Shown here: positions 8,001-34,722 of the stretch, piece after piece | How the letters are laid out: the number at the start of each line of letters is the position of its first letter | Numbering within the stretch: the first letter of the stretch is position 1 | NCBI GenBank assembly: GCA_943350045.1 | Contig: CALQZW010000003.1 | Coordinates: 1-34,722 of the forward strand | Direction of reading: 5' to 3' | DNA: 34,722 bases | Source of the DNA: Candidatus Nomurabacteria bacterium | GTDB lineage: Bacteria > Patescibacteriota > Minisyncoccia > Phycocordibacterales > UBA9973 | The notes under the pieces: model-generated | Seen by the model: only the letters and a program-made list of their open reading frames with translations | What the model was told of the DNA's origin: nothing | Database searches by the model: none | Program-made: the position numbers and the translations under genes

Positions 8001-8128
8001 TTATGAACCTTAAGCTCTGTGATTTTTTCGAACAACTCCTGAAGCGCCGGGCGATATGAGTGCTCAGTGGCATGACCACTATTATAGGTCTCGATTATTT
8101 TCTGAATAAATGTTGCAACGGGATTCAT
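5030..8128 (-). CDS. Type IIG / Type ISP-like restriction-modification enzyme (N6-adenine DNA methylase)
   Basis: N-terminal PD-(D/E)xK-like GAPDFVFTKGKTVVAYAEAKD, SAM motif VLDPATGTGTFLNEAI, catalytic GNPPYS, long C-terminal specificity region. Start taken at MNPVATFIQK; the ORF extends to 8215. Confidence 0.88.
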   Translation of the reverse strand: MNPVATFIQKIIETYNSGHATEHSYRPALQELFEKITELKVHNEPKRSEFGAPDFVFTKGKTVVAYAEAKDVYVSLDEIEKSEQMTRYYGYSNIILTNGLDFRFYRNAIAYGDSVVIGKLNKEGIEILEGQFQLLSDTIGAFIKESKEPIKSGTVLSKVMAGKARRIRDNVKKFLEDEKNPRNENLLGVYGVIKKLLLADLDHTKFADMYAQTIVYGLFVARFNDKTPENFTRQEARDLIPPSNPFLREFFNHIAGSSFDNRIEHIVNELCEELSHADVREIIHKYYKTDLFGKVHESKDPIIHFYEDFLQEYDSAERKKMGVFYTPLPVVRFIVRAVDYILKKEFDLLQGLADASKIDIVKEIQGKRHKVPIHKVQVLDPATGTGTFLNEAILHIKKSFEGQEGRWSSYVNEDLLPRLHGFELMMASYTIAHLKLSSTIAETGAKIKNTRLGVYLTNTLEKAEVEEKTLFDIGLGKAITEESNQANKVKNELPIMVVMGNPPYSVSSQNKGEWIQDLIKEYKKDLNERKINLDDDYIKFIRLSESLIEKNGSGIVAMITNNSFIDGVTHRQMRKHLLETFDSIYIVDLHGNSKKREKAPNGGNDENVFNIMQGVSISILIKKEGKKKGLDSRGDVYHAELYGKRDAKFEALNNDGVGTMKWSKLNYSEPYFFFVPKDFSANVEYEKGFNVDQIFKESVSGVESVRDSLTIHFNKKELELVINDFARLSEKEISAKYHTNDARDWKISRAKEDIISTVNDQSNYRQISYRPFDIRDIYYTGKQNGFVCNSRFNVMKHLLQSNIALNVTSKNRQSSLGYFFISKLITDRHLLDTAGDSMSVFPLYLYADDGSKVSNLKKEIVNEIESVVGKTTPEDILDYIYAILHSPSYREKYKEFLKIDFPRVPYPTSVETFKKLVALGKELREFHLLESPKINSFITTFPESGNNTVEAKYPKYKDSKVYINEKQYFGGVPEVVWSFYIGGYQPAQKWLKDRQGRTLSNEDILHYQKMVVVLMETERIMQQINSVDFVAL

Positions 8129-8255
8129 GTGATTTTTGTTTTTAAATCTGAATATAATCCTTACTGATTCAATCGTATTAATACTATACCCCATTTTTCG
8201 AGGCTTGGACACCATGGGTGTTGTATCGCCATAAAGTGAAGTCGGTTATCCCTCT

Positions 8256-19905: not shown

Positions 19906-22230
19906 CTATTCGAGCACGCTTCGAAGAATATCTTCAGGTACTTCACGAATCTTTTTTGGAGCTTCAGGCTGTGGCTGTGGTTCAAATTTTTGCGCAGGGT
20001 TTACTGCAGGAGCTGGTTCTATGGCGGGACCAGAAGCACGTGCGCGAGCGATGGCTTCTGCGAGCGCTGAAACGCGATCAGATGACGCTTCTTTTGCAGT
20101 AAACGTCGTATTTGAAGAACGAGAAGATGGAGTAGTTGGTTCGGAATGCGCAGGCTTGCGGAGTGATGACAGCGAGACCGTCGGAGCCTCTACCTTTTGC
20201 ACTGGTTTCTCGATTGGTTTTTCGACAGGTTTTACGGCAGGCTCGTCAGAGATTTCTGCGTTTTTCTTTTGCTGATATTCGTCGCCTTTCTTCAACGCCT
20301 CGTCGAGAGCTTGTTTAAGAATGTTCTTGAGTCCGTCCTCTTTTTGGAGAATCGGAGCTTTTGGTGCTGGTCGTGGAGCAGGGCGAGGAGCTGGCGCTGT
20401 TGGTCGCGGAGCTGGTGCAACAGGACGTGGAACTGGGCGAGATGCGACAGCTGGCGCAGGAGTAGGAGCTGGAGTTGGAGTTGGTGTAGGAGTAGGAGCC
20501 GGCTGTGGTTGTGAAGCTGGTGTTGGAGTAGGTGCAGGCGCTGGTTGTGCCTGTGGCTGTGGTTCTGGCTGTGGCGCTGGCGCTGGAGTATACACAGGCT
20601 CTGGAGCAGTTACTGGAGCCTCGGCAACCACAGGCGTTGGGGCTTCAGCAGGCTTGGCTTCTATAGCAGGAGCTGAAGCTTCGGCAGGTTTTTCTGCCGG
20701 CTTCTCTACTGGTTTTGGTACACGTACGGGCTTGAGCTCGCCAGACTTAATCTTTGCGATACACTCACGACAGTACACTGGACGGCCTGGCTCTGGTTCA
20801 AATGGAACAAATGTTTCCTTTCCACATGCAGAACAGACTGCCTTAAACTTCCCTTCTCCTTCTTTCTCTTTTCCATCTCCGCCGGCTGCATCACCTCCAC
20901 TACGAGACTTTTCCATCATTCCACTCCATGCAGAAATTTCTTTCTCAACGTCTTCGCGTGGCTTTGCGTACAATCGGCGTGATGATTCAATAATCTGCTC
21001 GGCAACGTCACTGTCGGTAACAACTTTAAATGGCGGAAGTGTGAGCGCAGAAAACGGACGTGACGTAATACCGTCTACCATGAGTTTGAGGTAGGCGTTG
21101 TAGTTTGGGAGGTTTACGAGGTCTTCGATTTCAAATTCTGGCTCGAATTCTTTTTCCAAAAACTCTGCGTCGGCCGCTCCAATACGGAACACAATCATTG
21201 TTCCAACGTTTCCGAACACTGCATCACGAACTGAGTCTGAATCTTTTGTGACGAGCTGAGCAATGTACTGGTGAGCAATAGTGAGGTTGAGTCGGTACTT
21301 TCGGGCCTCAGACAAAATGGAAGCGAAAGATTCAGTAACGAAGTTTTGGAACTCGTCCACGTACAAGTAAAAGTCCTTACGCTGGTCTTCTGGAATACGC
21401 ACGCGCTCCATTGCGGCGAGCTGCATTTTCGTGATGAGCATTCCTCCGAGCAGTGCTGAGTTGTCTTCTCCAATGCGTCCCTTTGAAACGTTCACAAGAA
21501 AGATTTTTCCCGAGTTCATGGCATCGAAAATATCGATGGTTGATTCTGCTTGTCCAAGAACGTTTCGCACCATTGAGGTAGAGAGAAACTGCCCCACTTT
21601 GTTTTGAATTGGAGCGATGGCTTCATTTCGGTACTGATCACGCCATGTTTCGTATTCGTTAATCCAAAACGAGCGGATAACAGGGTCTTTTACATTTACG
21701 AGAATCTCGGCACGATAGTCTTTATCGACGAGCAGGCGTGGAATACCAAGAAGCGTTGACCCAGGGGTATCAAGAAGAGCCAGAATACAGTTATTGAGAA
21801 TGTATTCCATTCGGGCACTCCATGCATTTGCCCAAATCTTGGTAAAGATTCCCATAAGCCCGGAAGCCACAAGGTGCTTATATTTCAGGTCGGCAATTTG
21901 CAATACATTAAATCCGATATGGTAGTCCTGATCGGCTGGGTTGAAATATATGACGTCTTTTACACGCTCTGGTGGAATAGTTGCAAGCACGGATTCTACG
22001 AGCTCTCCGTGCGGGTCTACAACGGCAAGTCCTTCGCCGTTAGCGATATTTTGCACGATCATGTTTGCAAGAAGCGCAGATTTACCCGTTCCGGATTTTC
22101 CGAGAATGTAGACATGCTGACGACGGTCACGACGCTTGATACCGAACACTTGAAATTGATTGCGAAAATTTGTTTTCGCAAGATACGTTATATCTTTATT
22201 GTAGTTAACTCCCTCGGGGAGGATATTCAT
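19906..22230 (-). CDS. VirD4/TraD-like coupling ATPase with C-terminal CxxC-x17-CxxC zinc ribbon and Pro/Ala-rich linker
   Basis: 774 aa; Walker A GKSGTGKSALLANMIVQNI, AVVDPHGELVESVLATIP, DFYLYVDEFQNFVTESFASILSEARKYRLNLTIAHQYIAQL; CSACGKETFVPFEPEPGRPVYCREC. Confidence 0.88.
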   Translation of the reverse strand: MNILPEGVNYNKDITYLAKTNFRNQFQVFGIKRRDRRQHVYILGKSGTGKSALLANMIVQNIANGEGLAVVDPHGELVESVLATIPPERVKDVIYFNPADQDYHIGFNVLQIADLKYKHLVASGLMGIFTKIWANAWSARMEYILNNCILALLDTPGSTLLGIPRLLVDKDYRAEILVNVKDPVIRSFWINEYETWRDQYRNEAIAPIQNKVGQFLSTSMVRNVLGQAESTIDIFDAMNSGKIFLVNVSKGRIGEDNSALLGGMLITKMQLAAMERVRIPEDQRKDFYLYVDEFQNFVTESFASILSEARKYRLNLTIAHQYIAQLVTKDSDSVRDAVFGNVGTMIVFRIGAADAEFLEKEFEPEFEIEDLVNLPNYNAYLKLMVDGITSRPFSALTLPPFKVVTDSDVAEQIIESSRRLYAKPREDVEKEISAWSGMMEKSRSGGDAAGGDGKEKEGEGKFKAVCSACGKETFVPFEPEPGRPVYCRECIAKIKSGELKPVRVPKPVEKPAEKPAEASAPAIEAKPAEAPTPVVAEAPVTAPEPVYTPAPAPQPEPQPQAQPAPAPTPTPASQPQPAPTPTPTPTPAPTPAPAVASRPVPRPVAPAPRPTAPAPRPAPRPAPKAPILQKEDGLKNILKQALDEALKKGDEYQQKKNAEISDEPAVKPVEKPIEKPVQKVEAPTVSLSSLRKPAHSEPTTPSSRSSNTTFTAKEASSDRVSALAEAIARARASGPAIEPAPAVNPAQKFEPQPQPEAPKKIREVPEDILRSVLE
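20365..20660 (-). repeat. Low-complexity Pro/Ala/Gln-rich coding repeat
   Basis: Encodes PAPAPQPEPQPQAQPAPAPTPTPASQPQPAPTPTPTPTPAPTPAPAVASRPVPRP... Confidence 0.85.
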
Positions 22231-22306: not shown

Positions 22307-23536
22307 TTAAAGCGTATACCCCATCGCGCTGGCAATGCGTTCCATGGCGACAATAAAGGCACTGCGACGCAGGTCGGTCTTTAGGCTCACAGCTTTTTCA
22401 TGCACTACGCGCGATTCTCGCATGAGAATATTCTTGAGTTTCGTATTCACATCTTCTTCACTCCAGTGCTCGCTACTGAGGTTTTGTTGCCACTCAAATG
22501 TAGAGACGGTCACACCTCCGGCGTTCGCCAAGATATCTGGCACGACGGGAATATGTTTTGCAAAAAGAATCTCGTCGGCTTCTGGAGTAATTGGGCCGTT
22601 GGCGAGTTCGAGAATGAACTTGGCTTGTACTCTATCTGCGTTCTCTGCAGTGATCTGGTTTTCAAGAGCGGCAGGAATAAGTACGTCACATAGAAGCTCA
22701 AGCAGTGCTTCATTTGAAATGTCGCGTGAACCAGGAAAGCCTGAGAGTGTTCCGTGCTCTTTTTTCCAGGCTTCGAGCGCTCCAATATCGATTCCGTCTT
22801 CTTTTACGATGCCTCCTTTTGAGTCAGAGGTTGCAATTACTTTGTATCCATTTTTTGAAAAAATTTCTCCTGCATGTCCACCAACATTTCCGAATCCTTG
22901 AATAACGACAGTGGCTCCATTTGGAACGGAGTAGAACTCTCGGAGTGTTTCAAACACATAGTATCCTCCGAGTCCTGTTGCTGCGCCACGCCCCTCAGAA
23001 CCGCCAAGCTCAATTGGCTTGCCGGTAAATGTCGCACGTGTTGTATCCCCTGAGATTTTTGCGAACTCGTCTACCATCCACCCCATGATTTCAGGAGTAG
23101 TATTTACATCCGGAGCTGGAACGTCTTTTTTGGGTCCAAGTACGTCGGCCATGCCTCGCACCCAGCCACGAGAGATTTTCTCGAGTTCTGTTTTAGAAAG
23201 TTTCTTTGGGTCAACAGTGATTCCACCCTTTCCTCCACCCATCGGAATATTTACCACTGCACATTTAAGCGCCATCCAAAACGCCAACGCTTTTACTTCG
23301 TGAATGTCGGCATTCTGGTGGTAGCGGATACCGCCTTTGTACGGCCCACGCGCGTTGTTAAACTGCACGCGATATCCTTCATATACTTCAAGTCGCCCGT
23401 CGTCCATTACAACGGGAATACTGATACGGACTTCACGCATCGGCACTGAGAGTTGTTTCAAAAACTGTTCTGGGAATGCCTGAACTTTCTGTGCACGAGC
23501 GAGCTGACTGAGGGCGTTTTCGAATGGATTATTCAT
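22307..23536 (-). CDS. gdhA: Glu/Leu/Phe/Val dehydrogenase (glutamate dehydrogenase)
   Basis: 409 aa; YRVQFNNARGPYKGGIRYH, MALKCAVVNIPMGGGKGGI, DVPAPDVNTTPEIMGWMVDEF, GFGNVGGHAGE, NAGGVTVSTFEWQQN. Confidence 0.96.
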   Translation of the reverse strand: MNNPFENALSQLARAQKVQAFPEQFLKQLSVPMREVRISIPVVMDDGRLEVYEGYRVQFNNARGPYKGGIRYHQNADIHEVKALAFWMALKCAVVNIPMGGGKGGITVDPKKLSKTELEKISRGWVRGMADVLGPKKDVPAPDVNTTPEIMGWMVDEFAKISGDTTRATFTGKPIELGGSEGRGAATGLGGYYVFETLREFYSVPNGATVVIQGFGNVGGHAGEIFSKNGYKVIATSDSKGGIVKEDGIDIGALEAWKKEHGTLSGFPGSRDISNEALLELLCDVLIPAALENQITAENADRVQAKFILELANGPITPEADEILFAKHIPVVPDILANAGGVTVSTFEWQQNLSSEHWSEEDVNTKLKNILMRESRVVHEKAVSLKTDLRRSAFIVAMERIASAMGYTL

Positions 23537-23553: not shown

Positions 23554-24411
23554 TTAGAATGGAATAGTATCGGACGACTTTGATTTTGAAGCGAGTTTCT
23601 TTTTTAGTGATCGCTTGCCAGCTTCGAGGCGCTGAATCTTTCTCGAGAGCTGATGCACGCGAATGGCCAGAAGGATAATACAGATGATGAGTATCAAGAA
23701 GGCGCTCCCACCATAGAGAACATATCTATCTGAAAGAAGTGTGATAAACGAGAATCGCGGGGCTTTTTGTGGAGCTGGTTCGCTTTGAGTTGAAATAGGA
23801 ACTTCAGGCTCAGGAACTATCGGCGTTGGCTCTATCGGAGCCGGCTCGATTGGCTTAGGCTCAGGTGGAGCAGTTTCTTTTGGTTTCTCAGTCTCTATCG
23901 GAGCCGGTAGAAGCGTAAAGCTTGCAGAGCCGAGGGCATTTGTAATGTCACTTCCCTCTCCATCATTTGCTAAAATGAGACCATTTGAAAACTTCACCAT
24001 AGCAACGCCCTCTTTCTTTACTCGAAACGTAACAGTGAATACAGTTCGTGGAGCACCTTGATATCCAGAGAGTGAAATTCCTTCAAAACGTATACTACCC
24101 GACCCCGGTGTGTAAATTGGACCGTCAGCTCCTGGCGGTAGCCAGTTTGTTAGAAGTGAGCCAGACTTACTTACTGAAACAACAGAGAGAAGGTCTGCGG
24201 GATATGAAAGCGTTCCGCTAATTGCGTTCAGCGGAGCTGAATAGCTTGAGGCACGCACTGTTACAGAAAATGTTTTTCCTTCAGTGTATGATCCTGTTGC
24301 AGGAAACACAGAAAGCATAGCCGCCTGAGATATCTGCGGAAAGAAAAACAGCAGTGCAAGAAAAAGACTACTTGCTACTTTTTTCGCATGAGCTTTTGTA
24401 TGGACTTCCAT
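23554..24411 (-). CDS. Membrane-anchored cohesin-like domain protein
   Basis: Signal peptide; AMLSVFPATGSYTEGKTFSVTVRASSYSAPLNAISGTLSYPADLLSVVSVSKSG...GAPRTVFTVTFRVKKEG (cohesin-like); Pro-rich linker, TM and basic tail. Overlaps the upstream gene end by 37 nt. Confidence 0.8.
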   Translation of the reverse strand: MEVHTKAHAKKVASSLFLALLFFFPQISQAAMLSVFPATGSYTEGKTFSVTVRASSYSAPLNAISGTLSYPADLLSVVSVSKSGSLLTNWLPPGADGPIYTPGSGSIRFEGISLSGYQGAPRTVFTVTFRVKKEGVAMVKFSNGLILANDGEGSDITNALGSASFTLLPAPIETEKPKETAPPEPKPIEPAPIEPTPIVPEPEVPISTQSEPAPQKAPRFSFITLLSDRYVLYGGSAFLILIICIILLAIRVHQLSRKIQRLEAGKRSLKKKLASKSKSSDTIPF

Positions 24412-25292
24412 CTATATATAAGTATCGCACAAAGAATAAGAAGAGCAACGCCCAAAAGGAGAGGAAATACGGGGATTGAAGATTTCTGCAAAGCCTCTGG
24501 TATTTCGGCTTCAGCAAGACGCTGATTGCCGGCGCGATCAAAGGCTCTCACGGAAACAGAAGAGAGTTTCTTTTGGTTTTTTAGCACGTACGGGCTCGTT
24601 GTGCGTACCCACTCTCCGTTGTTCTCTCGCACTTCATAGTACACGATTCCTCCACCGAGGTCTTTTGTCGTAAACACAACGACATATGCGCCGTCAAAAA
24701 GTAGCTCGTCAGTGACAATTACAGGAGTAAATGGAAGCGGTGCCTCAGTGTCTGTCGGGCGAGTAATTACCGTACTCGTACTACTCGTTGCGTTCAGTGA
24801 GAGAGCAGAATACGTCACGGCGACGCGTGTGCCACTGCCATCGTTTCGATATACTTCGGGATTTTTAGCGGAAATTGAAATTGGACCAGTTGTCTTTGGG
24901 ATAAAATATAGACGAATCAGCGAGCCCGGAGCACGGCTTGTCGTATCAAATGGGTCAATATATCCGTTAAAGCCTCCAGGAATAATTCCAGAAAATGAAA
25001 GCTCTCCGGCAGTTTTTTCTGTTGGGTTCTCTACCCAGAGTGGAATAATAGACTGCCCTTCGTTGCTATACGCATAGGACACTGTCTCGGGAAACGTAAT
25101 CGTTAACCCAGCAGTGTTTACGGATTCACCTTGCGTATCCAGATATACGTCGACATAAAACTCTTGTCCAACGGAAACTTCGCGCGAAGATGGAACGAAA
25201 GAAATCTGCGCGGCAAAAACACTCTGCGGTGTATAGATATATACAAAACAGAGACTGAGCACAATGAATGATGTTCGAAAAAAATTCTTCAT
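24375..25292 (-). CDS. Membrane-anchored cohesin-like domain protein (second copy)
   Basis: AQISFVPSSREVSVGQEFYVDVYLDTQGESVNTAGLTITFPETVSYAYS...GSLIRLYFIPKTTGPISISA; C-terminal TM FPLLLGVALLILCAILIYRW. Start at MKNFFRTS with AGGA upstream. Confidence 0.78.
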   Translation of the reverse strand: MKNFFRTSFIVLSLCFVYIYTPQSVFAAQISFVPSSREVSVGQEFYVDVYLDTQGESVNTAGLTITFPETVSYAYSNEGQSIIPLWVENPTEKTAGELSFSGIIPGGFNGYIDPFDTTSRAPGSLIRLYFIPKTTGPISISAKNPEVYRNDGSGTRVAVTYSALSLNATSSTSTVITRPTDTEAPLPFTPVIVTDELLFDGAYVVVFTTKDLGGGIVYYEVRENNGEWVRTTSPYVLKNQKKLSSVSVRAFDRAGNQRLAEAEIPEALQKSSIPVFPLLLGVALLILCAILIYRWKSIQKLMRKK

Positions 25293-25296
25293 ATAA

Positions 25297-26214
25297 TTAT
25301 CCTGTCCAGTAATACGCGAGAATACTAAAATCAACTAAGTTTACTTTTCCGTCAGTATTAAGGTCTACTTTTGTCGGAGGAGTTCGCTTGTTGTACCAAA
25401 ACGCCAAGATAGAGTAGTCGACGATGTTTACTTTATAGTCACAGTTGAGGTCCCCCTTTCCTCCACCACAATATTTTTTCGCCTCAACATTTTTGTCACC
25501 GACGGCAAATTGCACTGGGCGTCCATACTCACTGGCTTCTCCCGGAAGCACTGCCTTGGCTTTTGCCTCATGGCCCCCTATTTCAAGTGGAGATGTGTCG
25601 AGCGTATACACATATGCACCCACTGCGTCCGTCTCTACAGAATGAAATGATTCAAACTCTGAATGCACTGAGATAACGACAGTACTCTCTGGAAGACTTT
25701 GTCCGAAGATTATCAAATTGTCACCCTGACGCACTTCGGACTTGTCGACGTCGATTGTCGGAGAAATGAATATTCCAGATACGTCTACCGTTGTTCCACT
25801 TCTAATTATGAGCGGAAAAGAAAAGTTTTCAGAACGACGGCCAGCCGAGTCTTCTCCATAGACAGTAAAGGTGTAGCTTCCTGCAGTCACGCTCGTAAAC
25901 GATACGGAAAAGCGAGCATCTGGACCTGCAATAGTAGTCACAGCAAGAGCTCCGTCTTGGAGAATGGATACGCGAGAGAGCGGATAGGCGCGTCCGCTAA
26001 AGTTTACGATAGTTGTAGGTCCAGGGAATCCACCACCTCCTCCACCTCCCCCTCCTCCTCCACCACCACCCCCAGGAGTGCCTGGCGGGTTTACCACTGC
26101 AGAGATTGTGAGTCCAGTGCTCAGGTCTACTGTTTGAGCACTCGCAGGGAAAAATCCTCCGAAAGATCCGGAAGCAAGAAGCGATAGTGTGAGCAAGAGC
26201 GATCGTAGTTTCAT
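25297..26214 (-). CDS. Secreted dockerin-domain protein with polyglycine linker
   Basis: Signal peptide MKLRSLLLTLSLLASGSFGGFFPASA; 15-Gly run; C-terminal duplicated dockerin motif DLNCDYKVNIVDYSILAFWY / DLNTDGKVNLVDFSILAYYWTG. Confidence 0.88.
   Translation of the reverse strand: MKLRSLLLTLSLLASGSFGGFFPASAQTVDLSTGLTISAVVNPPGTPGGGGGGGGGGGGGGGFPGPTTIVNFSGRAYPLSRVSILQDGALAVTTIAGPDARFSVSFTSVTAGSYTFTVYGEDSAGRRSENFSFPLIIRSGTTVDVSGIFISPTIDVDKSEVRQGDNLIIFGQSLPESTVVISVHSEFESFHSVETDAVGAYVYTLDTSPLEIGGHEAKAKAVLPGEASEYGRPVQFAVGDKNVEAKKYCGGGKGDLNCDYKVNIVDYSILAFWYNKRTPPTKVDLNTDGKVNLVDFSILAYYWTG
26029..26076 (-). repeat. GGN trinucleotide-like tract encoding a polyglycine run
   Basis: Plus strand ccaccacctcctccacctccccctcctcctccaccaccaccccc; encodes PGGGGGGGGGGGGGGGFPG. 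Confidence 0.9.
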
Positions 26215-26225
26215 AGAGTAACGCA

Positions 26226-26251
26226 CGAAACCCCTTTTTCTCGGGGTTTCG
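26226..26251. terminator. Hairpin between the DUF916-like and dockerin genes
   Basis: CGAAACCCC-TTTTTCTC-GGGGTTTCG; T-rich tail only on the plus strand, so minus-strand termination is uncertain. Confidence 0.5.
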
Positions 26252-26257
26252 TTTTCT

Positions 26258-27346
26258 TTATTTCTTTTCCTTTTTAGCTACTACTTTCTTTACTGGGCGA
26301 AGTACGCGGTGCACGATGGATCGTTTTTTCTGTGCATGCATTTCTTCGAACATTTCTTCTGCGCGCTCAATAACCCATTTGTTGTAATGACGGATACTCA
26401 TGCGGACAAGGAAGAAAATGAGTGTTGAGATGACAAGAATGATGAGGAGTAACTGCCACGGAAGAACCCAGAATGAAAACTTTGCACTCGTTGTTTCTTT
26501 CTGAAATCCGTACGCAAGTTCAAGGTGCGCAACATATCGTCCGACTGCAAAGTTACGCCACTGATACTTCGCTTCATTAAAAAATCCACTGTGTTCTACA
26601 GGTTGTGCAGGATTTGGAATATCTTTTCCAACCCACGCAGTTTCAAAACGTCGAGTACTGCGCGGAAGAATGTTTCCGTCGGCAGGGTTGCCCGGAACTT
26701 CTTTTGCAGTAAACCCAAGAAGGTTCTTAATCTTTACGAGACCGACTGGCTTGATGCGGTCACTACCAGCATTTTCAAAACGGTATGTAAAATCAACTGG
26801 AAGCGCAGTATAAAATGTCTTTTTACCGACAGTAGCAAAATCTACGATTCCTCCTTTTTCACTAATTGGACCTGAGACGGAAAGAAGTACAAGAAGTCCT
26901 GTTTTTGCTCCAATAGAGACCTGCCCTGCTCCACTACTCTGTGGCGTAGTTCCCCAAAAGATTGCTCCGAAATGTCCTCCCGCAGATGCATCAGCCGGCA
27001 CTGAAACAGTGAACGGAACTGTTTTTGAAGACTTTGGTGCAATTACGATTTTTTCCGCAGCCTGCATCCATGTTCCGATTCCATCTTTTGGCTCAACAAA
27101 GGCTGGATTACCACTCTCTCCCTGAGCTTCAAAGTTTGCATATGAGATATAGAACGTTTCAGTTGTTGGACGCTCGTTATACAGAGTAACTTCTTCAGTA
27201 AGTGTCTGGCCTGGGTCAGCCTGAAGTTCAAGACGAATAGGAGTAAGAGTGAGCGCGTTCGCAGAGGCAGTAATGCTCAAGAAAAAAAGACTCGCGAGTA
27301 CGATTTTTCCCAGAAATGTTCGAGTGAAATGTGCGAGTATATTCAT
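26258..27346 (-). CDS. DUF916/WxL-associated-like membrane-anchored surface protein
   Basis: Signal peptide; LTLTPIRLELQADPGQTLTEEVTLYNERPTTETFYISYANFEAQ...APKSSKTVPFTVSVPADASAGGHFGAIFWG; TM LPWQLLLIILVISTLIFFLV and basic tail. Confidence 0.75.
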   Translation of the reverse strand: MNILAHFTRTFLGKIVLASLFFLSITASANALTLTPIRLELQADPGQTLTEEVTLYNERPTTETFYISYANFEAQGESGNPAFVEPKDGIGTWMQAAEKIVIAPKSSKTVPFTVSVPADASAGGHFGAIFWGTTPQSSGAGQVSIGAKTGLLVLLSVSGPISEKGGIVDFATVGKKTFYTALPVDFTYRFENAGSDRIKPVGLVKIKNLLGFTAKEVPGNPADGNILPRSTRRFETAWVGKDIPNPAQPVEHSGFFNEAKYQWRNFAVGRYVAHLELAYGFQKETTSAKFSFWVLPWQLLLIILVISTLIFFLVRMSIRHYNKWVIERAEEMFEEMHAQKKRSIVHRVLRPVKKVVAKKEKK

Positions 27347-27349
27347 ATA

Positions 27350-28432
27350 CTAGAAGGTTGCAGTTGCAACATAGGTAAGGGCTGTTGAGTACGCACCAGC
27401 GGCAGTAGTTGAAGAGATATTTGCTACATATGAAGCAGTGTACTCACAGTCAGCGGCAGCGGTAGACGTTGCAACTGCTGTTGTCGTAGAAGGCTGGAAT
27501 GAAAACGTGTCCGCAGTGCCGTAGTTTGTTGCGTATGAACACGTACCTGCGTTTGTCACAACATCAGTACCAACGTTTGGTGTTGCGTTGTCACGAAGAT
27601 TGATTCCGAATCCTTCCGTTCCTGGAGCAGAAACAGCTCCGGTTACTCCGTAGGCATCAATAGTATTTGCCCCACTTGTAAGAGTTGGACCGTTGTAGGT
27701 AATAGCAAACCCTCCAGCGGAGTTTGTTGCGATTTCAACACTATGACTCCCCGTCCCTGGAGCACCCGCAGTAAGCGTTCCAAGTGCCACAGTACTTGAT
27801 CCAAGCGCAAATGTAAGTGTAGGGTTTACTGTAGCACTGACAGTAACCACTGCATTGTCTTCAATAACTACTGCACCAGAACCCACGTCTCCGTTAGATC
27901 CAGTGATTGTATAAATAGATGAATCAGTGTCGGCGTTGGCGTTTGTCATAGTACCAGTACCCGATGCAGTTGTTCCGTGAATTGTAAATAAAATTGTCGC
28001 ATTTGCAGATGACGCAGTATATGAGCCAGCGGCAACAACAGTAAACACATTTGTACTTGTGTTAATTGTCACACACACGTTATTTACTCCAGCAGCACAC
28101 GAAGGAGCTACTCCACTTGATGTACTCACAGCATTGACTGTTCGCGCAGTTCCATCGTTGAACGAAAAATCAGCGGTCTGCCATGAGCCAATACTGTTGA
28201 GAGTAAAATCAGTATCACTGAAGTTTATAGCAAAATCTTCACCAGTAGCAAATGTGTCTCCACCGACAAGTGTCCACTCAAGTACGTGCGTAGCCGGAGT
28301 ATTTTTTGCCTGAGTAGACATGGCATCAGACACGTCTGCGTAGTTTGCAGCAAACGTAATCCCCGCTCCAAATGGCAAAGAGAAAAGTGCCACGAGAAGC
28401 CCACTTGTAAGTACCTGAAGTTTTTTTAGCAT
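27350..28432 (-). CDS. Secreted surface protein, 360 aa, with C-terminal domain shared with the giant protein
   Basis: Signal peptide MLKKLQVLTSGLLVALFSLPFGAGITFA; C-terminus ...ASYVANISSTTAAGAYSTALTYVATATF. Confidence 0.85.
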   Translation of the reverse strand: MLKKLQVLTSGLLVALFSLPFGAGITFAANYADVSDAMSTQAKNTPATHVLEWTLVGGDTFATGEDFAINFSDTDFTLNSIGSWQTADFSFNDGTARTVNAVSTSSGVAPSCAAGVNNVCVTINTSTNVFTVVAAGSYTASSANATILFTIHGTTASGTGTMTNANADTDSSIYTITGSNGDVGSGAVVIEDNAVVTVSATVNPTLTFALGSSTVALGTLTAGAPGTGSHSVEIATNSAGGFAITYNGPTLTSGANTIDAYGVTGAVSAPGTEGFGINLRDNATPNVGTDVVTNAGTCSYATNYGTADTFSFQPSTTTAVATSTAAADCEYTASYVANISSTTAAGAYSTALTYVATATF

Positions 28433-28438
28433 ACAGAT

Positions 28439-28466
28439 ATTGTAACACGCTCACCGAGCGAAACAA
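28439..28466 (-). promoter_or_regulatory. Promoter TTGTTT-N16-TACAAT, 6 nt from ATG at 28432
   Basis: Minus strand TTGTTTCGCTCGGTGAGCGTGTTACAATATCTGTATG; spacer contains CGCTC-GGT-GAGCG. Confidence 0.6.
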
Positions 28467-28485
28467 CCCGAGAAATCCACGGTTT

Positions 28486-31400
28486 TTAGAATGTACCAGT
28501 AACGATGTATGTAAGATTTGTAGAATACGCACCAGGAGGTGTTGTAGATGAAATATTTGCGATATATCGCATCGAGTATGTTGTCGTAACGCCATCACCG
28601 ACAGTAGACTGTGCAACTACGCTTGGAATTGTTGAAGCTGAGGCAGGAAAACCGAATCCACTTCCACTGTAGAGAGCCTCTACAACACCAGATCCTCCTG
28701 TTGCAACAGAGCGAAGTCCAAATTGTTCAGTGCCAGGAATTGAAGCAATGTTTGAAGAACCCATCGGAGCCAAAGTATGTGAACCATTACTCAGTGGAGA
28801 GCCTTGCACGGTGAGCATGTACCCGCCCGCCGACTCTGCCGTGATAGCAATACTGTGTGCCTCTACTTCTGTATACGATCCTGCTTCATCTGCAGTACAA
28901 AACTTTGGTGCAGTAGAAGAGAGCGCTCCAAATCCGATTGTTGCATCAGAGACTGCAGTTGAAAGTGAGAATGAAATTGTACTAAAAGCCCAGCATGAAT
29001 CATTGTTTCCAGAATCAGTAGATCCAATAACAGTCATCATATTGGCCCCCATTTCACATCCTCCATCTTTTACATCTACATATCGCACATAGCTTGTTCC
29101 TGTTGGATTAAACTTCCACTGTGTTCCGCTTGCAGTTGAATAGAGTTTTACTAAACCACCTCCGATTCCGGTAGCATTGAAATGATTTGTCACTCCGAAA
29201 ATTGGTGATCCCGAAACGGAGAAGTTTACCTCTTTTGCAGCAGTGTGTGAAATGTTGAGATTGTAAAAATCTGTTGAGCCACTGATTGTTGCAGTACCAG
29301 CTCCAGTGAATGAAATAGTAGAAGTTTCGGCAGTGAATGTTCCGTCGTTATTCCAAGAACCCGAGAGTGTTGCAGTACCACTGCCTCCCAACAGCGTTGC
29401 TCCAGAATCTATATCAATATTTCCAGCGGTTGTATTGAACGTATCAAGGTCGAGAGTTCCCGCCATCGCAGTCAATGTTCCAGCAACTGAAAGAGTTCCA
29501 GTACTCACGTATGTCTCACTTCCATTATTCACACGAAGGTTGTGATAGCTCAGACCGGCTGGAATTGTTGTGTTTCCACTTCCATTGTTCCCTGTCAACG
29601 TAATTGTCGACGTACCAGTAAGACTTCCACTCGTGTATACAATTGGAGTTCCGCTTGTTCCCGAGACAGTAATGAGCGAAGCATTACCTGCAAGCGTTCC
29701 TCCATTGAATACGATTCCATCGGCGTCGAGTGAGTAGTTCGATCCAGTGTCGAGCGTCGCTCCCCCGTCCAAGGAAACTGTTCCTCCCGCAGTCGTATTT
29801 CCTCCGAGTGTTTTTACTCCAGAGACACCTGACGTTGTAAGGTTTGAATACGAAAGTCCTTGGTCAATAGTCTGAGTACCCGCAAGATTGTAATCTACGG
29901 TTGAACCAGAACTGAGTGTAATTGTAGAAAATCCCGCAGAATAATTTCCAGCAAACGTACTCGCACCGACGCGAATCGTTGCTCCGTTTGCCACAGAGAG
30001 AGTGTTTGAACCCGAACCTGTAACGAGATGAGACGCGGGGTCAAATGTTCCAGCAGAAATAGTCAGCGCTCGAGTACTTGCAATACTTATCGGACCAGTC
30101 AGTGTCTTTGTCCCCGTACCTGTTTGCGTCAGCGCATTAAATGCAATCGTTCCGGAGTTTATATTCGCATTTCCATTTCCCGAGAGAAATACCGTAGACG
30201 CACCCGCGGTAAATATTCCTCCAGTTCCAAGCGTAAAGAGCGTACCTGAAGTACCGGTGAGTGAGATATTTGAAGATCCTGCAGTAAAGGTACAGCTTGA
30301 GCCAGTACATGCTCCGCCTCCGACAACAAGACTGCCGGTCGATAGCGCATTACTTGTGTTCGTACTAAGCGTTGCCGATGAATTGGAGCCAAGGCGCTGT
30401 ATTGTCGTTACCCCCGCAACAGAAAGAGGTCCTGCCATGTTCACCGTGAGTGTAGACGCAGTACCTGTTGGCATAATTGCTAGATTACCCGCAATCGTTG
30501 TCGTACCAGTTGCAAAAGTAAACGCACGATTCGCAGTAAGTGTCGGCGAAATAACTACATTTCCATATGTCACAGTCGAAGGAACATGCGTTGCAGTATG
30601 CGCTGCATCAGAGAGGAAGATTATCGTCGACGCTGGGTCGAGTGTGATTGTCGGGAACAGTGGGAGGCCTCGAACGGTTGTCGAAGTAGTTCCACTATTA
30701 CAGGTCGCTGAAGTGTTAGAAGCACTCACTGTTCCACCGAGGCACAGTGTCCCTCCGGCATCTATTTGCATAGAATTCAGTGTTGTACCCGCAAGCAATA
30801 TTCCAAGCCCTCCGTCATTTAGTACTCCCTGTTTAATGTACAACTGAGCACCCGCAGCATTCGCAATCGTAATTGCCGCACCAGCGTTTATAACAGTTGC
30901 AGTAGAATCAATTGTGAGTTTATGAAAAGACACTGCAGAACTTATGAGGCTTGGAGTTCCTGAAGTACTTCTAACAATAAATTCAGAAGTATTCACGTTA
31001 AACAGTCCACTTACTCCTCTTGTGAAGAGAGTTCCCGAATTAGCATTCAATATAATTGTTCCTGCGCGCGCGTTAATTCCAGCACTTCCAGAATTGGCAA
31101 GACTTAAACTTCCAGTCGTTACTGTATAATTTCCGACCGAATTTAAATCAAGCACACCAACAGTAATTGTGATTGCATTCATGACTTCCAAGTCTGCCTG
31201 CATGGTCTTTATACCAGTGCCATTTAACGTGAGATTATACAATGCATTTGTGCCAGTAAAACTGCCTGCATTTAAGTTTGTAGCCAAAGTACTTGAAATG
31301 AGTATTGTTGAAGTACCTCCCGAAAAAACCCCAGACCCATTGCGAGTTAAGTTTGTACCGGCAGTTGCACTGAGTGTAACAGTCGAACCATTCGCAATAA

Positions 31401-34400
31401 ACTGCCCTCCGTCGTTAATCGTAAGTGTTCCAACAGAAGTGGCATAGTTTGATGGTGTGGTATCAAATATTCCCGTAGCACCCCCTGAGCCGCCCACAAC
31501 AAGATTTCCAGTTGCTCCGAAGGTAGTAGAAGCATTCAATGGCACTGTAAGAGTTCCAGTTCCGGATGGATTAATTGTAAACGTACCAGTACTTAATGCG
31601 GGAGTACTTCCTATTGTATACACTCTGTTTGCAGTAAGCACTGGAGCGAATGTCACGTTTCTAAATGTAGTATTTCCACTTAAGAAAGTAATGTCTGCAT
31701 CAGATGTAACGAGAAATGTTGAAGCGCCCGAATTGTTTAAGTTTGAACTAGCTCCTTTTGTAAAAAGTGTTCCAGATGTACCCGTAAGTCGAATCGTAGA
31801 AGCGCGAGTGGTAAACACGGCACTTCCAGAGTTTGCCATAACAAGATACCCAGTACTAAGTGTATAGTTACTAGAGATATTCGTATCAATTGTTCCACTC
31901 GTTATCGTCGTAATGTTTGAAACGTCGATATCAGCACCTAGTGTTTTTGTCGAAGATCCTTGAATCGTTAAATTATACAACGCACTCGTGCCGTTAAACG
32001 CTCCTGTACTTAATGTAACGGCGAGAGTACTCGTAATAAGAACAGTAGAAGTACCCGCAGTAAATACTCCCGTACCCAGATGAGTCATATGCGTCCCTGA
32101 GTTTGCAGTAAGAGTAATTGTTGAAGCATTTGCCAAAAACTCTCCACCAGTATTTACAATAAATCCACCGGCAGTGAATGAATGATTCGATGAAGAGGTG
32201 CTAAACTGCCCAAGTGCACTGCCTGTGCCCTCTACTTGTAGATACCCAGAAGCTCCAAGGTTTACTGCCCCGTTTAATTCTGCGGTAAGTGTTCCTGTCC
32301 CCGACGGACTCACAAGCAGTATTCCACTAGAGATAGTTGGAGAACTTCCTAACGTATATGTTCTGTTCGCAGTTAGCACTGGAGCGAATGTTACATTTCT
32401 GAAAATTGTTGCTCCATTGAGAAATGTAATATCGGCATCAGAAACTACACGAATAGTTGATGTTCCTGCAGTAAATCCTCCACTCGCGGCTCGTGTAAAG
32501 AGCGTTCCTGACGTAGCAGTTAGAGTAATCGTAGATGCACGCGCAGAGATTGACGCAGTTCCAATGTTTGCAATAATAATTCTTCCAGCAGACAGTGGCC
32601 AGTTACTAGTATTGTTTGTATCAAGCACTCCAAGCATTACGTTCAAATCATTTGTAATATCAATCGCAGCCGTCATGTTTTTTGTTCCCCCTCCGTTGAT
32701 TGTGAGATTATAAAACGCATTACTCCCGGTGATTGCTCCCGAGTTAATCGAAATACCAGCTCCTCCCGTCATTACAACAGTTGAAGTTCCTGCAGTAAAG
32801 ACTCCGCCAGAAGTAAGCGTGAATGGCACAGCTCCGGCAGTTGTTAGTGTGATAGTCGAGTCAGTTCCTGCGAGGTAGGTACCAGTTGCTCCGATGGTAA
32901 GAGTCGGAGCAGTAATATTACAACTACGAGATCCGGTAGCGCAGGAGAGCGCACTTGCATCGAGTGTTCCGTTAATAGTTAAACCGAGCAAAGCGTTTGC
33001 ACCGGTTGCATCCATGTCCAGTGAGATTGTGTGTCCTGCACTGATAATCGCACTGTCTCCACTATTCGGAACACGCCCACAGTTCCATGTTCCTGCATCA
33101 CTCCACACTCCAGAGGAGACCTGAGAAGAACAAATCGCGTCACTGGCAATTTGCCACTGACGTGCTTCTTCAAAAATAGCGACTCCAGAAGAAGCAGAAC
33201 TACTTCCCGGATACAGAGAGACCGGGCCGAGAACATAAAACTCAGGAGAAATATCGGGAGCATCGAAGCGATACCCGATAGTACGAGAACTACCTCCCGT
33301 GAGAGAAACATTCCATGTAAGAATACGGATGTCACCAGAGACAATATTTGAAACAGGCGCAGGAAAATCTGGATGGTCTGAAATAATAAAACTTGCGGGT
33401 ACTCGCTCAATCACAGTTCCCTCCCAATCTGTCGGAGAAGAAATCGTCATCGATACTGGATATACTGCAACAGGAAAAATACGAGTAGGGCCGGTACGAG
33501 ACACGACAAAAGGATGTGAGGTGCGCACCTCAAACGAGTCAACGAGCGTGCGAGTTCCGTTTACCGTTGTCGCAGCGAGACGAATAGTGTACACACCAGG
33601 AGTATCTGGGAGCGCTACACGAGAGTGATAGTCTGGAACAGAAATAACGTTATCAGGACCACATTCTGGATCTTGCACAATACTTCCGTCACTTGTTCGT
33701 TTAAAAATCGGTGCACCACTTGGTCCGTCGATACGCATAACAAGTACTGCATCACAGATAGTATGACCGTAGTCGTCGAGAACTCCCATCTGAATATACG
33801 CTTCGTCTTCGGGAGCGTATATTGATTTATTAGTGTTTACTGCAAGTACTCCCCAAGAAAAGTCCTGACGAGAAACCAAAAGAGCTTCAGGAGTATGAAG
33901 CGTTACTTTCAAGGAAAACTTTCCTGGACGGAATCGTCGCCCCGGCTTTTCGATTGTAATTCTATTCCTTGTCTCTCCATCGACAACAACACGCTCAACG
34001 GAGGCATTGATTGAGACTTCTTCTCCGAGAGCATCAAGAATTTCGATATCGATAGCTGGAGCAACATCTGCCTCAGATTGAGCATTCGCAACATTTGCCG
34101 ATGGAATTGTATCTGAAATTACATCCTTGAGCTTATCAAACAGTGATGAATCTTGCTGTTCTTGTTCCGGAGAATCTTTCGTGTCTGTATGCTCCTGAGT
34201 TGGAGCACCATATATCCCCGCCTTGTCTTCAATCACCGTTGCCTTCTTTGCATCAACAAGCTCGGCAATGTCGTAGACGCTAAGGTTTGGATTTGTCACA
34301 TCAAACGTTGGCTCTTCGGCTGAAGCAAAAATATCTTTCTCTGTTGAGATAATCGTAAGGTCTGGGTCATTGAGTTCAATAGTTGGAGGAAGCTCTGCTT

Positions 34401-34722
34401 CGGGTGCGTCTTCAAAACCGACGTCGATACGCATAGCATCGAGATACACTACAGGCATTTTGTCGAATGTCTGAATCGGCTCAAGTGCAATCTGGAGTCG
34501 AGAAACATCGTCCCATGTTCCAAGCTCTGCGTCACTAATACTAAAACGCGCGCTACTCCAGTTTGACATGCTCACCGTTCCAAGGTCACGCCAATCATTT
34601 CCATTGAGTGTGTAGCGCACCATCATGAAGTCTCCAAAGGTAGAGTCTGGAGCTGGAGCAACAGCACCACCCGCGTCACTAGCGTTCTCACCCTCCTCGG
34701 AAACAACTGTTTCTTCAGTAGA
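28486..34722 (-). CDS. Giant repetitive secreted/surface protein (beta-solenoid), N-terminus beyond window
   Basis: ORF of 2046 aa from 34626 remains open for 32 more codons to the window edge (STEETVVSEEGENASDAGGAVAPAPDSTFGDF). MG2-like NTNKSIYAPEDEAYIQMGVLDDYG; G8-like SGVWSDAGTWNCGRVPNSGDSAIISAGHTISLD; many TAGTSTV / ALYNLTI repeats. Confidence 0.9.
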   Translation of the reverse strand, partial: STEETVVSEEGENASDAGGAVAPAPDSTFGDFMMVRYTLNGNDWRDLGTVSMSNWSSARFSISDAELGTWDDVSRLQIALEPIQTFDKMPVVYLDAMRIDVGFEDAPEAELPPTIELNDPDLTIISTEKDIFASAEEPTFDVTNPNLSVYDIAELVDAKKATVIEDKAGIYGAPTQEHTDTKDSPEQEQQDSSLFDKLKDVISDTIPSANVANAQSEADVAPAIDIEILDALGEEVSINASVERVVVDGETRNRITIEKPGRRFRPGKFSLKVTLHTPEALLVSRQDFSWGVLAVNTNKSIYAPEDEAYIQMGVLDDYGHTICDAVLVMRIDGPSGAPIFKRTSDGSIVQDPECGPDNVISVPDYHSRVALPDTPGVYTIRLAATTVNGTRTLVDSFEVRTSHPFVVSRTGPTRIFPVAVYPVSMTISSPTDWEGTVIERVPASFIISDHPDFPAPVSNIVSGDIRILTWNVSLTGGSSRTIGYRFDAPDISPEFYVLGPVSLYPGSSSASSGVAIFEEARQWQIASDAICSSQVSSGVWSDAGTWNCGRVPNSGDSAIISAGHTISLDMDATGANALLGLTINGTLDASALSCATGSRSCNITAPTLTIGATGTYLAGTDSTITLTTAGAVPFTLTSGGVFTAGTSTVVMTGGAGISINSGAITGSNAFYNLTINGGGTKNMTAAIDITNDLNVMLGVLDTNNTSNWPLSAGRIIIANIGTASISARASTITLTATSGTLFTRAASGGFTAGTSTIRVVSDADITFLNGATIFRNVTFAPVLTANRTYTLGSSPTISSGILLVSPSGTGTLTAELNGAVNLGASGYLQVEGTGSALGQFSTSSSNHSFTAGGFIVNTGGEFLANASTITLTANSGTHMTHLGTGVFTAGTSTVLITSTLAVTLSTGAFNGTSALYNLTIQGSSTKTLGADIDVSNITTITSGTIDTNISSNYTLSTGYLVMANSGSAVFTTRASTIRLTGTSGTLFTKGASSNLNNSGASTFLVTSDADITFLSGNTTFRNVTFAPVLTANRVYTIGSTPALSTGTFTINPSGTGTLTVPLNASTTFGATGNLVVGGSGGATGIFDTTPSNYATSVGTLTINDGGQFIANGSTVTLSATAGTNLTRNGSGVFSGGTSTILISSTLATNLNAGSFTGTNALYNLTLNGTGIKTMQADLEVMNAITITVGVLDLNSVGNYTVTTGSLSLANSGSAGINARAGTIILNANSGTLFTRGVSGLFNVNTSEFIVRSTSGTPSLISSAVSFHKLTIDSTATVINAGAAITIANAAGAQLYIKQGVLNDGGLGILLAGTTLNSMQIDAGGTLCLGGTVSASNTSATCNSGTTSTTVRGLPLFPTITLDPASTIIFLSDAAHTATHVPSTVTYGNVVISPTLTANRAFTFATGTTTIAGNLAIMPTGTASTLTVNMAGPLSVAGVTTIQRLGSNSSATLSTNTSNALSTGSLVVGGGACTGSSCTFTAGSSNISLTGTSGTLFTLGTGGIFTAGASTVFLSGNGNANINSGTIAFNALTQTGTGTKTLTGPISIASTRALTISAGTFDPASHLVTGSGSNTLSVANGATIRVGASTFAGNYSAGFSTITLSSGSTVDYNLAGTQTIDQGLSYSNLTTSGVSGVKTLGGNTTAGGTVSLDGGATLDTGSNYSLDADGIVFNGGTLAGNASLITVSGTSGTPIVYTSGSLTGTSTITLTGNNGSGNTTIPAGLSYHNLRVNNGSETYVSTGTLSVAGTLTAMAGTLDLDTFNTTAGNIDIDSGATLLGGSGTATLSGSWNNDGTFTAETSTISFTGAGTATISGSTDFYNLNISHTAAKEVNFSVSGSPIFGVTNHFNATGIGGGLVKLYSTASGTQWKFNPTGTSYVRYVDVKDGGCEMGANMMTVIGSTDSGNNDSCWAFSTISFSLSTAVSDATIGFGALSSTAPKFCTADEAGSYTEVEAHSIAITAESAGGYMLTVQGSPLSNGSHTLAPMGSSNIASIPGTEQFGLRSVATGGSGVVEALYSGSGFGFPASASTIPSVVAQSTVGDGVTTTYSMRYIANISSTTPPGAYSTNLTYIVTGTF
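31630..32400 (-). repeat. Long-period coding repeat within the giant protein (about 738 bp / 246 aa)
   Basis: gcagtaagcactggagcgaatgt at 31631 recurs as gcagttagcactggagcgaatgt at 32369, in frame; protein NVTFAPVLTANRVYTIGS / NVTFAPVLTANRTYTLGS. Confidence 0.8.

What the first reader, a model, noticed from the sequence alone, without database searches (positions are those of the whole stretch)
27350..28985. Homologous C-terminal domain shared by the 360-aa protein and the giant protein (candidate sorting/anchoring module)
Both end with the same ~155-aa pattern: ITF-L-S...LG-L...HS--I-T-SAGGY-IT--G--L--G--TI...PGTE-FG---R...Y-ANISSTT--GAYST-LTY--T-TF-stop. Neither copy has a TM or LPxTG. A conserved extreme C-terminal domain on tandem surface proteins suggests a secretion, polymerisation or cell-attachment module (27350-27815 and 28486-28982).
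Basis: partly seen in the sequence, partly recalled or inferred. Interest (0 to 1): 0.7.

Follow-up and report, generated by a model that had tools for sequence, protein, structure and literature searches.

The report
Pilus-building tail domain of CPR bacteria
Two neighbouring surface proteins of an uncultured ultrasmall bacterium (CPR/Patescibacteria) end in the same module, which is the recently named 'Pam' pilin domain; it always sits at the very end of the protein and is encoded beside a membrane protein that looks like a pilus-assembly chaperone, so it is most likely the joint by which fibres and giant adhesins are assembled and held on the cell.

Summary
The last ~150-165 residues of the 360-aa protein and of the giant protein are homologous (35% identity, E=5e-19; 69.7 bits against at most 24.3 for 999 shuffles). 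Both pass the cut-off of NCBIfam NF058581, CPR_Pam_pilin_C (126 and 75 bits, cut-off 55), so the domain is already named.

New here is the context. (1) In 167 of 168 distinct copies the domain ends exactly at the stop codon, and 166 end in Phe/Tyr. (2) It occurs in 103 of 380 phylum genomes. (3) The next gene is almost always a membrane-anchored WxLIP-like protein, present in 161 of 380 genomes. Its predicted fold best matches E. faecium WxLIP, then the chaperone-usher chaperones CfaA and CsuC. (4) A dockerin protein and a cohesin-TM protein follow in a conserved order.

Best reading: a pilin-type module clamped by its C-terminal strand and carboxylate on a membrane-tethered WxLIP-like chaperone; the short protein is the likely fibre subunit, the giant a large adhesin. 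Polymerisation itself is inferred. This is a new variant of a known kind.

The parts
27353..27817 (-). C-terminal Pam-type pilin domain of the 360-aa protein (residues 206-360), ending ...GAYSTALTYVATATF-stop
   Evidence: NF058581 126 bits, cut-off 55; predicted as a well-ordered beta domain, pLDDT about 82-97 over residues 211-360
28489..28980 (-). C-terminal Pam-type pilin domain of the giant protein, ending ...GAYSTNLTYIVTGTF-stop
   Evidence: NF058581 75 bits, cut-off 55; BLASTP to the other copy 5e-19
27350..28432 (-). 360-aa pilin-like protein: signal peptide-like N-terminus, N-terminal beta domain, C-terminal Pam domain
   Evidence: orthologues of about 330-400 aa directly upstream of the WxLIP-like gene in most loci
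28486..34722 (-). giant surface protein (at least 2078 aa, cut by the contig end): T/S/G-rich repeats plus C-terminal Pam domain; candidate large adhesin subunit
   Evidence: orthologues of 2024, 2390 and 2640 aa in relatives
26258..27346 (-). 362-aa WxLIP-like protein: N-terminal hydrophobic segment, two Ig-like domains, TM 300-318, Lys/Arg-rich tail; candidate membrane-tethered assembly chaperone or anchor
   Evidence: PF06030 WxLIP_PGBD matches 10 of 11 orthologues (best 1e-4); Foldseek best hits WxLIP 9i1y/9i25, then CfaA and CsuC
26876..26923 (-). candidate clamp strand (residues 142-157, QVSIGAKTGLLVLLSV) of the WxLIP-like protein: the most conserved of the stretches compared; its first part (to residue 147) lies in a segment with pLDDT below 50
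   Evidence: entropy 0.76 against 1.25 (rest of domain 1) and 1.48 (domain 2); pLDDT<50 at 138-147
25297..26226 (-). 309-aa secreted Ig protein with C-terminal type I dockerin; occupies the position that PamR has in other Pam loci
   Evidence: PF00404 28.4 bits, cut-off 22.9, 15 of 15 orthologues; the only dockerin found in the genome
24375..25334 (-). 319-aa cohesin-like protein with C-terminal TM (289-307)
   Evidence: similar to the 285-aa cohesin protein (phmmer 3.8e-5); TM; Pfam cohesin not reached by most members
23554..24411 (-). 285-aa protein with cohesin domain and TM (232-250)
   Evidence: PF00963 25.9 bits, cut-off 24.1; TM

Best explanation
The shared C-terminal domain is a Pam-type pilin module. 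After export it is an Ig-like domain that needs a partner, and its last strand must end the chain: the terminal Phe/Tyr and free carboxylate are held by the neighbouring WxLIP-like membrane protein, whose conserved but disordered hairpin in domain 1 adds a strand to the module. This works like a chaperone-usher chaperone, but is membrane-tethered and has no usher in the locus. The ~360-aa protein is the likely fibre subunit and the giant protein a large adhesive subunit joined through the same module. The dockerin protein and the cohesin-TM proteins downstream probably tie the assembly to the cell membrane. Shown: homology, strict C-terminal position, conserved operon, WxLIP/chaperone fold by prediction, real dockerin and cohesin domains. 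Inferred: binding of module to WxLIP-like protein, polymerisation, adhesin role, dockerin-cohesin contact.
For: NF058581 Pam pilin cut-off passed by both copies. 167/168 copies end at the stop and 166/168 in F/Y, with Gly at -15, Tyr at -13, and hydrophobic residues at -9 and -7. The WxLIP-like gene is directly downstream of the best pilin in 9/10 family loci and 22/28 loci spread over the phylum, and a C-domain gene lies upstream in nearly all of 53 loci anchored on it. Foldseek of the 362-aa model: WxLIP 9i1y 2.9e-12, WxLIP bound to WxL 9i25 1.1e-11, CfaA, CsuC; by sequence, too, EfmWxLIP1 is the only PDB protein hit, though weakly (E=0.17). Published: AlphaFold predicts that the WxLIP hairpin, disordered alone, completes the WxL sandwich (PMC10599100); the chaperone CsuC anchors the carboxylate of the C-terminal Phe of pilin CsuA/B in its interdomain cleft (PMC4654587). 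The corresponding hairpin here is conserved but low-confidence alone.
Against: No complex could be modelled here. No free N-terminal donor strand was identified in the 360-aa protein, so donor-strand exchange between subunits is not shown. No filament is known for this lineage; 'pilus' rests on the NCBIfam name, whose source paper was not found. Relatives of the giant have an N-terminal hydrophobic segment behind an extension of about 13-70 residues, so the giant might be a membrane-anchored protein instead of a tip subunit. The Foldseek matches of the 360-aa model are weak (TM about 0.2).
Confidence: 0.6

Rival explanations
1. WxL-type anchoring without polymerisation: the domain is a surface-retention module, like WxL domains, that docks on the WxLIP-like membrane protein and perhaps peptidoglycan. 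The giant and the 360-aa protein are a 'long' and a 'short' partner of a static surface complex, not pilus subunits.
For: The gene set matches the WxL cluster (long WxL, short WxL, WxLIP with TM; PMC10599100) and the best fold match is WxLIP itself. The WxLIP-like protein keeps its TM anchor in the window and in the aligned orthologues. Dockerin and cohesin suggest a static complex.
Against: Pfam WxL does not ring in any of 30 Pam-bearing genomes at E<=1 and no member of A1 matches it. NCBIfam curators call the family pilin. Some loci carry three to five C-domain proteins, as expected for a multi-subunit fibre.
Confidence: 0.3
2. The domain is a cleaved or barrel-recognised C-terminal secretion signal of the T9SS-CTD or outer-membrane beta-signal type; the terminal Phe resembles the beta-signal.
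For: Strictly C-terminal position with terminal aromatic residue.
Against: CPR bacteria are regarded as monoderm (general knowledge; their T4SS is of the monoderm type, PMC12102498 title). The domain is a ~150-aa folded domain predicted with high confidence beside a WxLIP-like gene, not beside secretion-pore genes.
Confidence: 0.04
3. A recent local duplication or a low-complexity (T/S/A-rich) resemblance without a shared function.
For: Both proteins are T/S/A-rich (by eye).
Against: Shuffle control, family cut-offs passed, and the same two-gene arrangement with sequence divergence in many genomes.
Confidence: 0.02

Closest known systems
Pam pilus system of CPR bacteria (NCBIfam NF058581 CPR_Pam_pilin_C, NF058579 PamT, NF058578 PamR)
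   Same: Same C-terminal domain above the family cut-off; the same core order, pilin(s) then WxLIP-like gene then Ig protein.
   Different: No PamT or PamR above cut-off in the six genes of the window's operon: a giant repeat protein stands in place of the large pilin, and a dockerin-bearing Ig protein plus cohesin-TM proteins stand in place of the TM-anchored PamR.
WxL / WxLIP clusters of Firmicutes
   Same: Long plus short protein with a shared C-terminal module and a WxLIP (DUF916-type, TM-anchored) protein; WxLIP is the top fold match.
   Different: No WxL sequence signature; Pfam WxL silent; PF06030 below its cut-off in the window protein (22.8 against 27.3) though above it in one Pam-locus relative (34.9).
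Chaperone-usher pili, archaic/alternative (CsuC-CsuA/B, CfaA-CfaB)
   Same: Chaperone-like two-Ig fold in the neighbour; subunit ends in an aromatic residue at the end of the last strand; conserved candidate donor strand.
   Different: No usher seen in the locus; chaperone tethered by a TM; no detectable sequence homology between pilins.
Cellulosomal cohesin-dockerin pairs
   Same: Type I dockerin and cohesin domains over Pfam cut-offs, encoded two genes apart.
   Different: In a surface-fibre operon of a CPR bacterium, single dockerin in the genome, cohesins on TM proteins.

Membership tests
Pam pilin C-terminal domain (NF058581) | Score above curated cut-off (55 bits) | tested here: met
   126/129 bits and 75 bits
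Pam pilin C-terminal domain (NF058581) | C-terminal location | tested here: met
   Both end at the stop codon; 167/168 family copies
Pam pilin C-terminal domain (NF058581) | Forms a filament | not testable with these tools
   Needs microscopy
PamT (NF058579, equivalog) | Whole-protein score of at least 240 bits | tested here: not met
   92 bits for the 360-aa protein; 62 bits for the giant's C-terminus
PamR (NF058578) | Score of at least 300 bits | tested here: not met
   No hit at E<=1 for the 309-aa dockerin protein; profile comparison with PamR only 46% probability
WxL domain (PF13731) | Pfam WxL match | tested here: not met
   No match at E<=1 in 30 genomes or in 35 pilins
WxLIP (PF06030 plus second Ig domain plus TM), 362-aa protein | PF06030 at gathering score | tested here: inconclusive
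   22.8 against 27.3 bits in the window protein; 10/11 orthologues match weakly; a Pam-locus relative reaches 34.9 bits
WxLIP (PF06030 plus second Ig domain plus TM), 362-aa protein | Two tandem Ig-like domains followed by a TM helix; fold | tested here: met
   Predicted model and TM 300-318; best PDB match WxLIP 2.9e-12
Chaperone-usher pathway | PapD-like chaperone fold | tested here: inconclusive
   CfaA and CsuC among the top Foldseek hits, TM up to 0.57 by target length, but WxLIP ranks first
Chaperone-usher pathway | Outer-membrane usher | not tested
   None among the gene products scanned in the window; the whole genome was not scanned for an usher
Sortase substrate | LPxTG motif plus C-terminal TM | tested here: not met
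   None in either protein
Dockerin type I, 309-aa protein | PF00404 cut-off | tested here: met
   28.4 against 22.9 bits
Cohesin, 285-aa protein | PF00963 cut-off | tested here: met
   25.9 against 24.1 bits

The most novel reading that the evidence does not exclude
CPR bacteria build surface fibres and display giant adhesins by an usher-less, membrane-tethered chaperone system in which a WxLIP-like protein completes and hands over C-terminal pilin domains; the WxL clusters of Firmicutes and the Pam pili of CPR are two branches of this one system, and the Paceibacteria branch ties it to the cell by a dedicated dockerin-cohesin pair.
Probability: 0.3. Interest if true: 0.82.

Novelty: new variant of a known kind. 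Interest (0 to 1): 0.58.

Why it matters
How ultrasmall epibiotic bacteria hold on to their hosts is largely open. This places a giant adhesin-like protein, a pilin, a chaperone-like WxLIP homologue and a dockerin-cohesin pair in one conserved operon, and gives a physical reason (carboxylate and last-strand capture) why the shared domain is always at the extreme C-terminus. It also suggests that WxL clusters of gut Firmicutes and CPR pili share an assembly principle, which can be tested with two recombinant proteins.

Tried and rejected
LPxTG/sortase: motif absent. WxL domain membership by sequence: no match. NF058580 as a further Pam component: it is a lipase model. Search of PDB sequences with the pilin profile: only a chance nanobody hit at E=0.45. 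Literature search for the Pam pilus source paper: not in the held library. Homology of the dockerin protein to PamR: collinear but not significant (46% probability), so only positional equivalence is claimed. A weak internal hit of the home-made C-domain profile at residues 59-147 (366-aa open frame) of the 360-aa protein (1.3e-7) was not taken as a second domain because it covers only part of the profile and the protein is rich in T/S/A. Fold search of the 360-aa model gave only generic adhesin/Ig hits with TM about 0.2, not used as evidence.

Full report
OBSERVATION. The window is one whole contig (G000:C3, 34722 bases). On the minus strand lie, in transcription order, a giant ORF open at the contig end (28486-34722), a 360-aa ORF (27350-28432), a 362-aa ORF (26258-27346), a 309-aa ORF (25297-26226), a 319-aa ORF (24375-25334) and a 285-aa ORF (23554-24411). 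The C-terminal ~165 residues of the first two align at 35% identity, E=5e-19. 999 shuffles of the giant's C-terminus never gave more than 24.3 bits against 69.7 for the real pair, and no other part of the giant resembles the domain. No LPxTG motif and no C-terminal TM segment were found.

IDENTITY. Pfam has no match for the 360-aa protein. NCBIfam (June 2026) has: NF058581 CPR_Pam_pilin_C, 'Pam pilus system pilin subunit', at 126 bits (360-aa protein) and 75 bits (giant C-terminus) against a cut-off of 55. PamT (NF058579), a whole-protein model, is hit mainly through the same domain and not passed (92 and 62 bits, cut-off 240). The source paper of the Pam system was not found in the held library, so I rely on the curated name only.

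DISTRIBUTION AND POSITION. In the 60 nearest relatives searched, 12 carry the domain, usually in two to three adjacent genes; in 380 genomes spread over the phylum, 103 do (27 above the strict cut-off); the 14 control genomes have none. Among 168 distinct copies with a stop in the loci fetched, 167 end with zero residues after the domain and one with a single residue; 129 end in Phe and 37 in Tyr. The last 16 residues follow A-G-x-Y-x-x-x-[LIV]-T-[YF]-[VI]-A-T-[AG]-x-[FY]: a final beta strand ending in an aromatic residue. Lengths of the host proteins run from short fragments at contig edges through a main peak at 300-420 aa (109 ORFs) to 2640 aa in the fetched loci, and to 4565-aa open frames among the weaker phylum matches: a constant C-terminus on variable N-termini.

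THE NEIGHBOUR. The 362-aa protein is clearly more conserved than the pilins (orthologues 40-50% identical; pilins mostly 23-33%). Pfam WxLIP_PGBD (PF06030, formerly DUF916) matches 10 of 11 orthologues, in the window protein below its cut-off; in a distant Pam locus it passes (34.9 against 27.3 bits). A profile of the family finds it in 161 of 380 phylum genomes. It lies directly downstream of the best pilin copy in 9 of 10 family loci and 22 of 28 phylum loci, with gaps of -52 to 114 bases. Starting from the neighbour instead, nearly all of 53 named loci have one to three C-domain ORFs immediately upstream. The AlphaFold model (mean pLDDT 81) has two Ig-like domains and a TM helix. Its best PDB matches are E. 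faecium WxLIP (9i1y, 2.9e-12) and WxLIP bound to long WxL (9i25, 1.1e-11); the next pilus-related ones are the fimbrial chaperones CfaA and CsuC. By sequence the only PDB protein hit is again EfmWxLIP1, weakly (E=0.17).

MECHANISM. In WxL clusters a long and a short WxL protein share a C-terminal domain and are encoded with a TM-anchored WxLIP; [quoted passage not shown]). In archaic chaperone-usher pili, chaperone CsuC completes pilin CsuA/B with its G1 strand and anchors the carboxylate of its C-terminal Phe in the interdomain cleft (PMC4654587). In the 362-aa protein residues 138-147, between the last two strands of domain 1, have pLDDT below 50, yet residues 142-157 (QVSIGAKTGLLVLLSV) are the most conserved of the stretches compared (entropy 0.76 against 1.25 and 1.48). 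Conserved in sequence but disordered when alone is what a strand-donating segment should look like. The strict C-terminal position and terminal aromatic residue of the pilin module fit a carboxylate clamp: anything added after the last strand would be expected to weaken binding. I therefore propose that the WxLIP-like protein is a membrane-tethered chaperone or anchor for this module. Shown: module, position, synteny, predicted fold. Inferred: the contact, the clamp, polymerisation, and the adhesin role of the giant.

ANCHORING GENES. Dockerin and cohesin pass Pfam cut-offs in the window and the dockerin is the only one found in the genome. In distant Pam loci the slot after the WxLIP-like gene holds PamR, a TM-anchored Ig/PKD protein. 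The dockerin protein may be a PamR equivalent whose TM anchor has been replaced by a dockerin-cohesin link; homology is not established.

CLASSIFICATION. It works like, and by the curated model is, a Pam pilin domain. It is not a WxL domain by sequence and not PamT. The 362-aa protein belongs to the WxLIP fold family by structure prediction, with the sequence test inconclusive for this member. The locus is a variant of the Pam type: giant adhesin-like protein, no PamT in the operon as far as the contig reaches, dockerin-cohesin in place of PamR.

LIMITS. No complex prediction was possible, the two structure jobs being spent on single chains. No donor strand was identified in the 360-aa protein. 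The giant's N-terminus is missing; in three relatives it has an N-terminal hydrophobic segment behind an extension of about 13-70 residues, which leaves open whether the giant is a tip adhesin or a membrane-anchored stalk.

Noticed in passing
window 23554-26226: Genuine type I dockerin (309 aa) and cohesin-TM protein (285 aa), plus a cohesin-like TM protein (319 aa), encoded side by side and syntenic in most related loci; no literature on cohesin-dockerin in CPR surface fibres was found.
   Followed up: partly
window 28486-34722 (contig end): The giant ORF is cut by the contig end; the reported 2046 aa starts at an internal ATG. Three relatives of 2024-2640 aa have a hydrophobic segment behind an N-terminal extension of about 13-70 residues.
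   Followed up: partly
window 19906-22230: 774-aa TrwB/TraG-like coupling protein ATPase (PF10412 5.6e-12) with a treble-clef zinc-finger match (PF23477), downstream of the surface operon and a glutamate dehydrogenase gene.
   Followed up: no
window 22307-23536: Glutamate dehydrogenase scoring best with the archaeal GdhA model (468 bits, below its cut-off of 750).
   Followed up: no
window 5030-8215: 1061-aa protein with weak matches to BREX PglX-type and MAD2 adenine methyltransferases; possible restriction or defence gene.
   Followed up: no
window 3657-4979: Serine beta-lactamase/D-aminopeptidase-like protein (class C family 4e-26, far below the equivalog cut-off).
   Followed up: no
L122, L105, L141: Contigs labelled Polynucleobacter, Bacteroidia and Bacteroidetes MAGs carry parts of this operon (L122 and L105 most of it) at 43-47% protein identity; probably mis-binned CPR contigs.
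   Followed up: no
L147, L149: Canonical Pam loci have a second pilin plus WxLIP-like pair after PamR, as if each pilin had its own chaperone.
   Followed up: no
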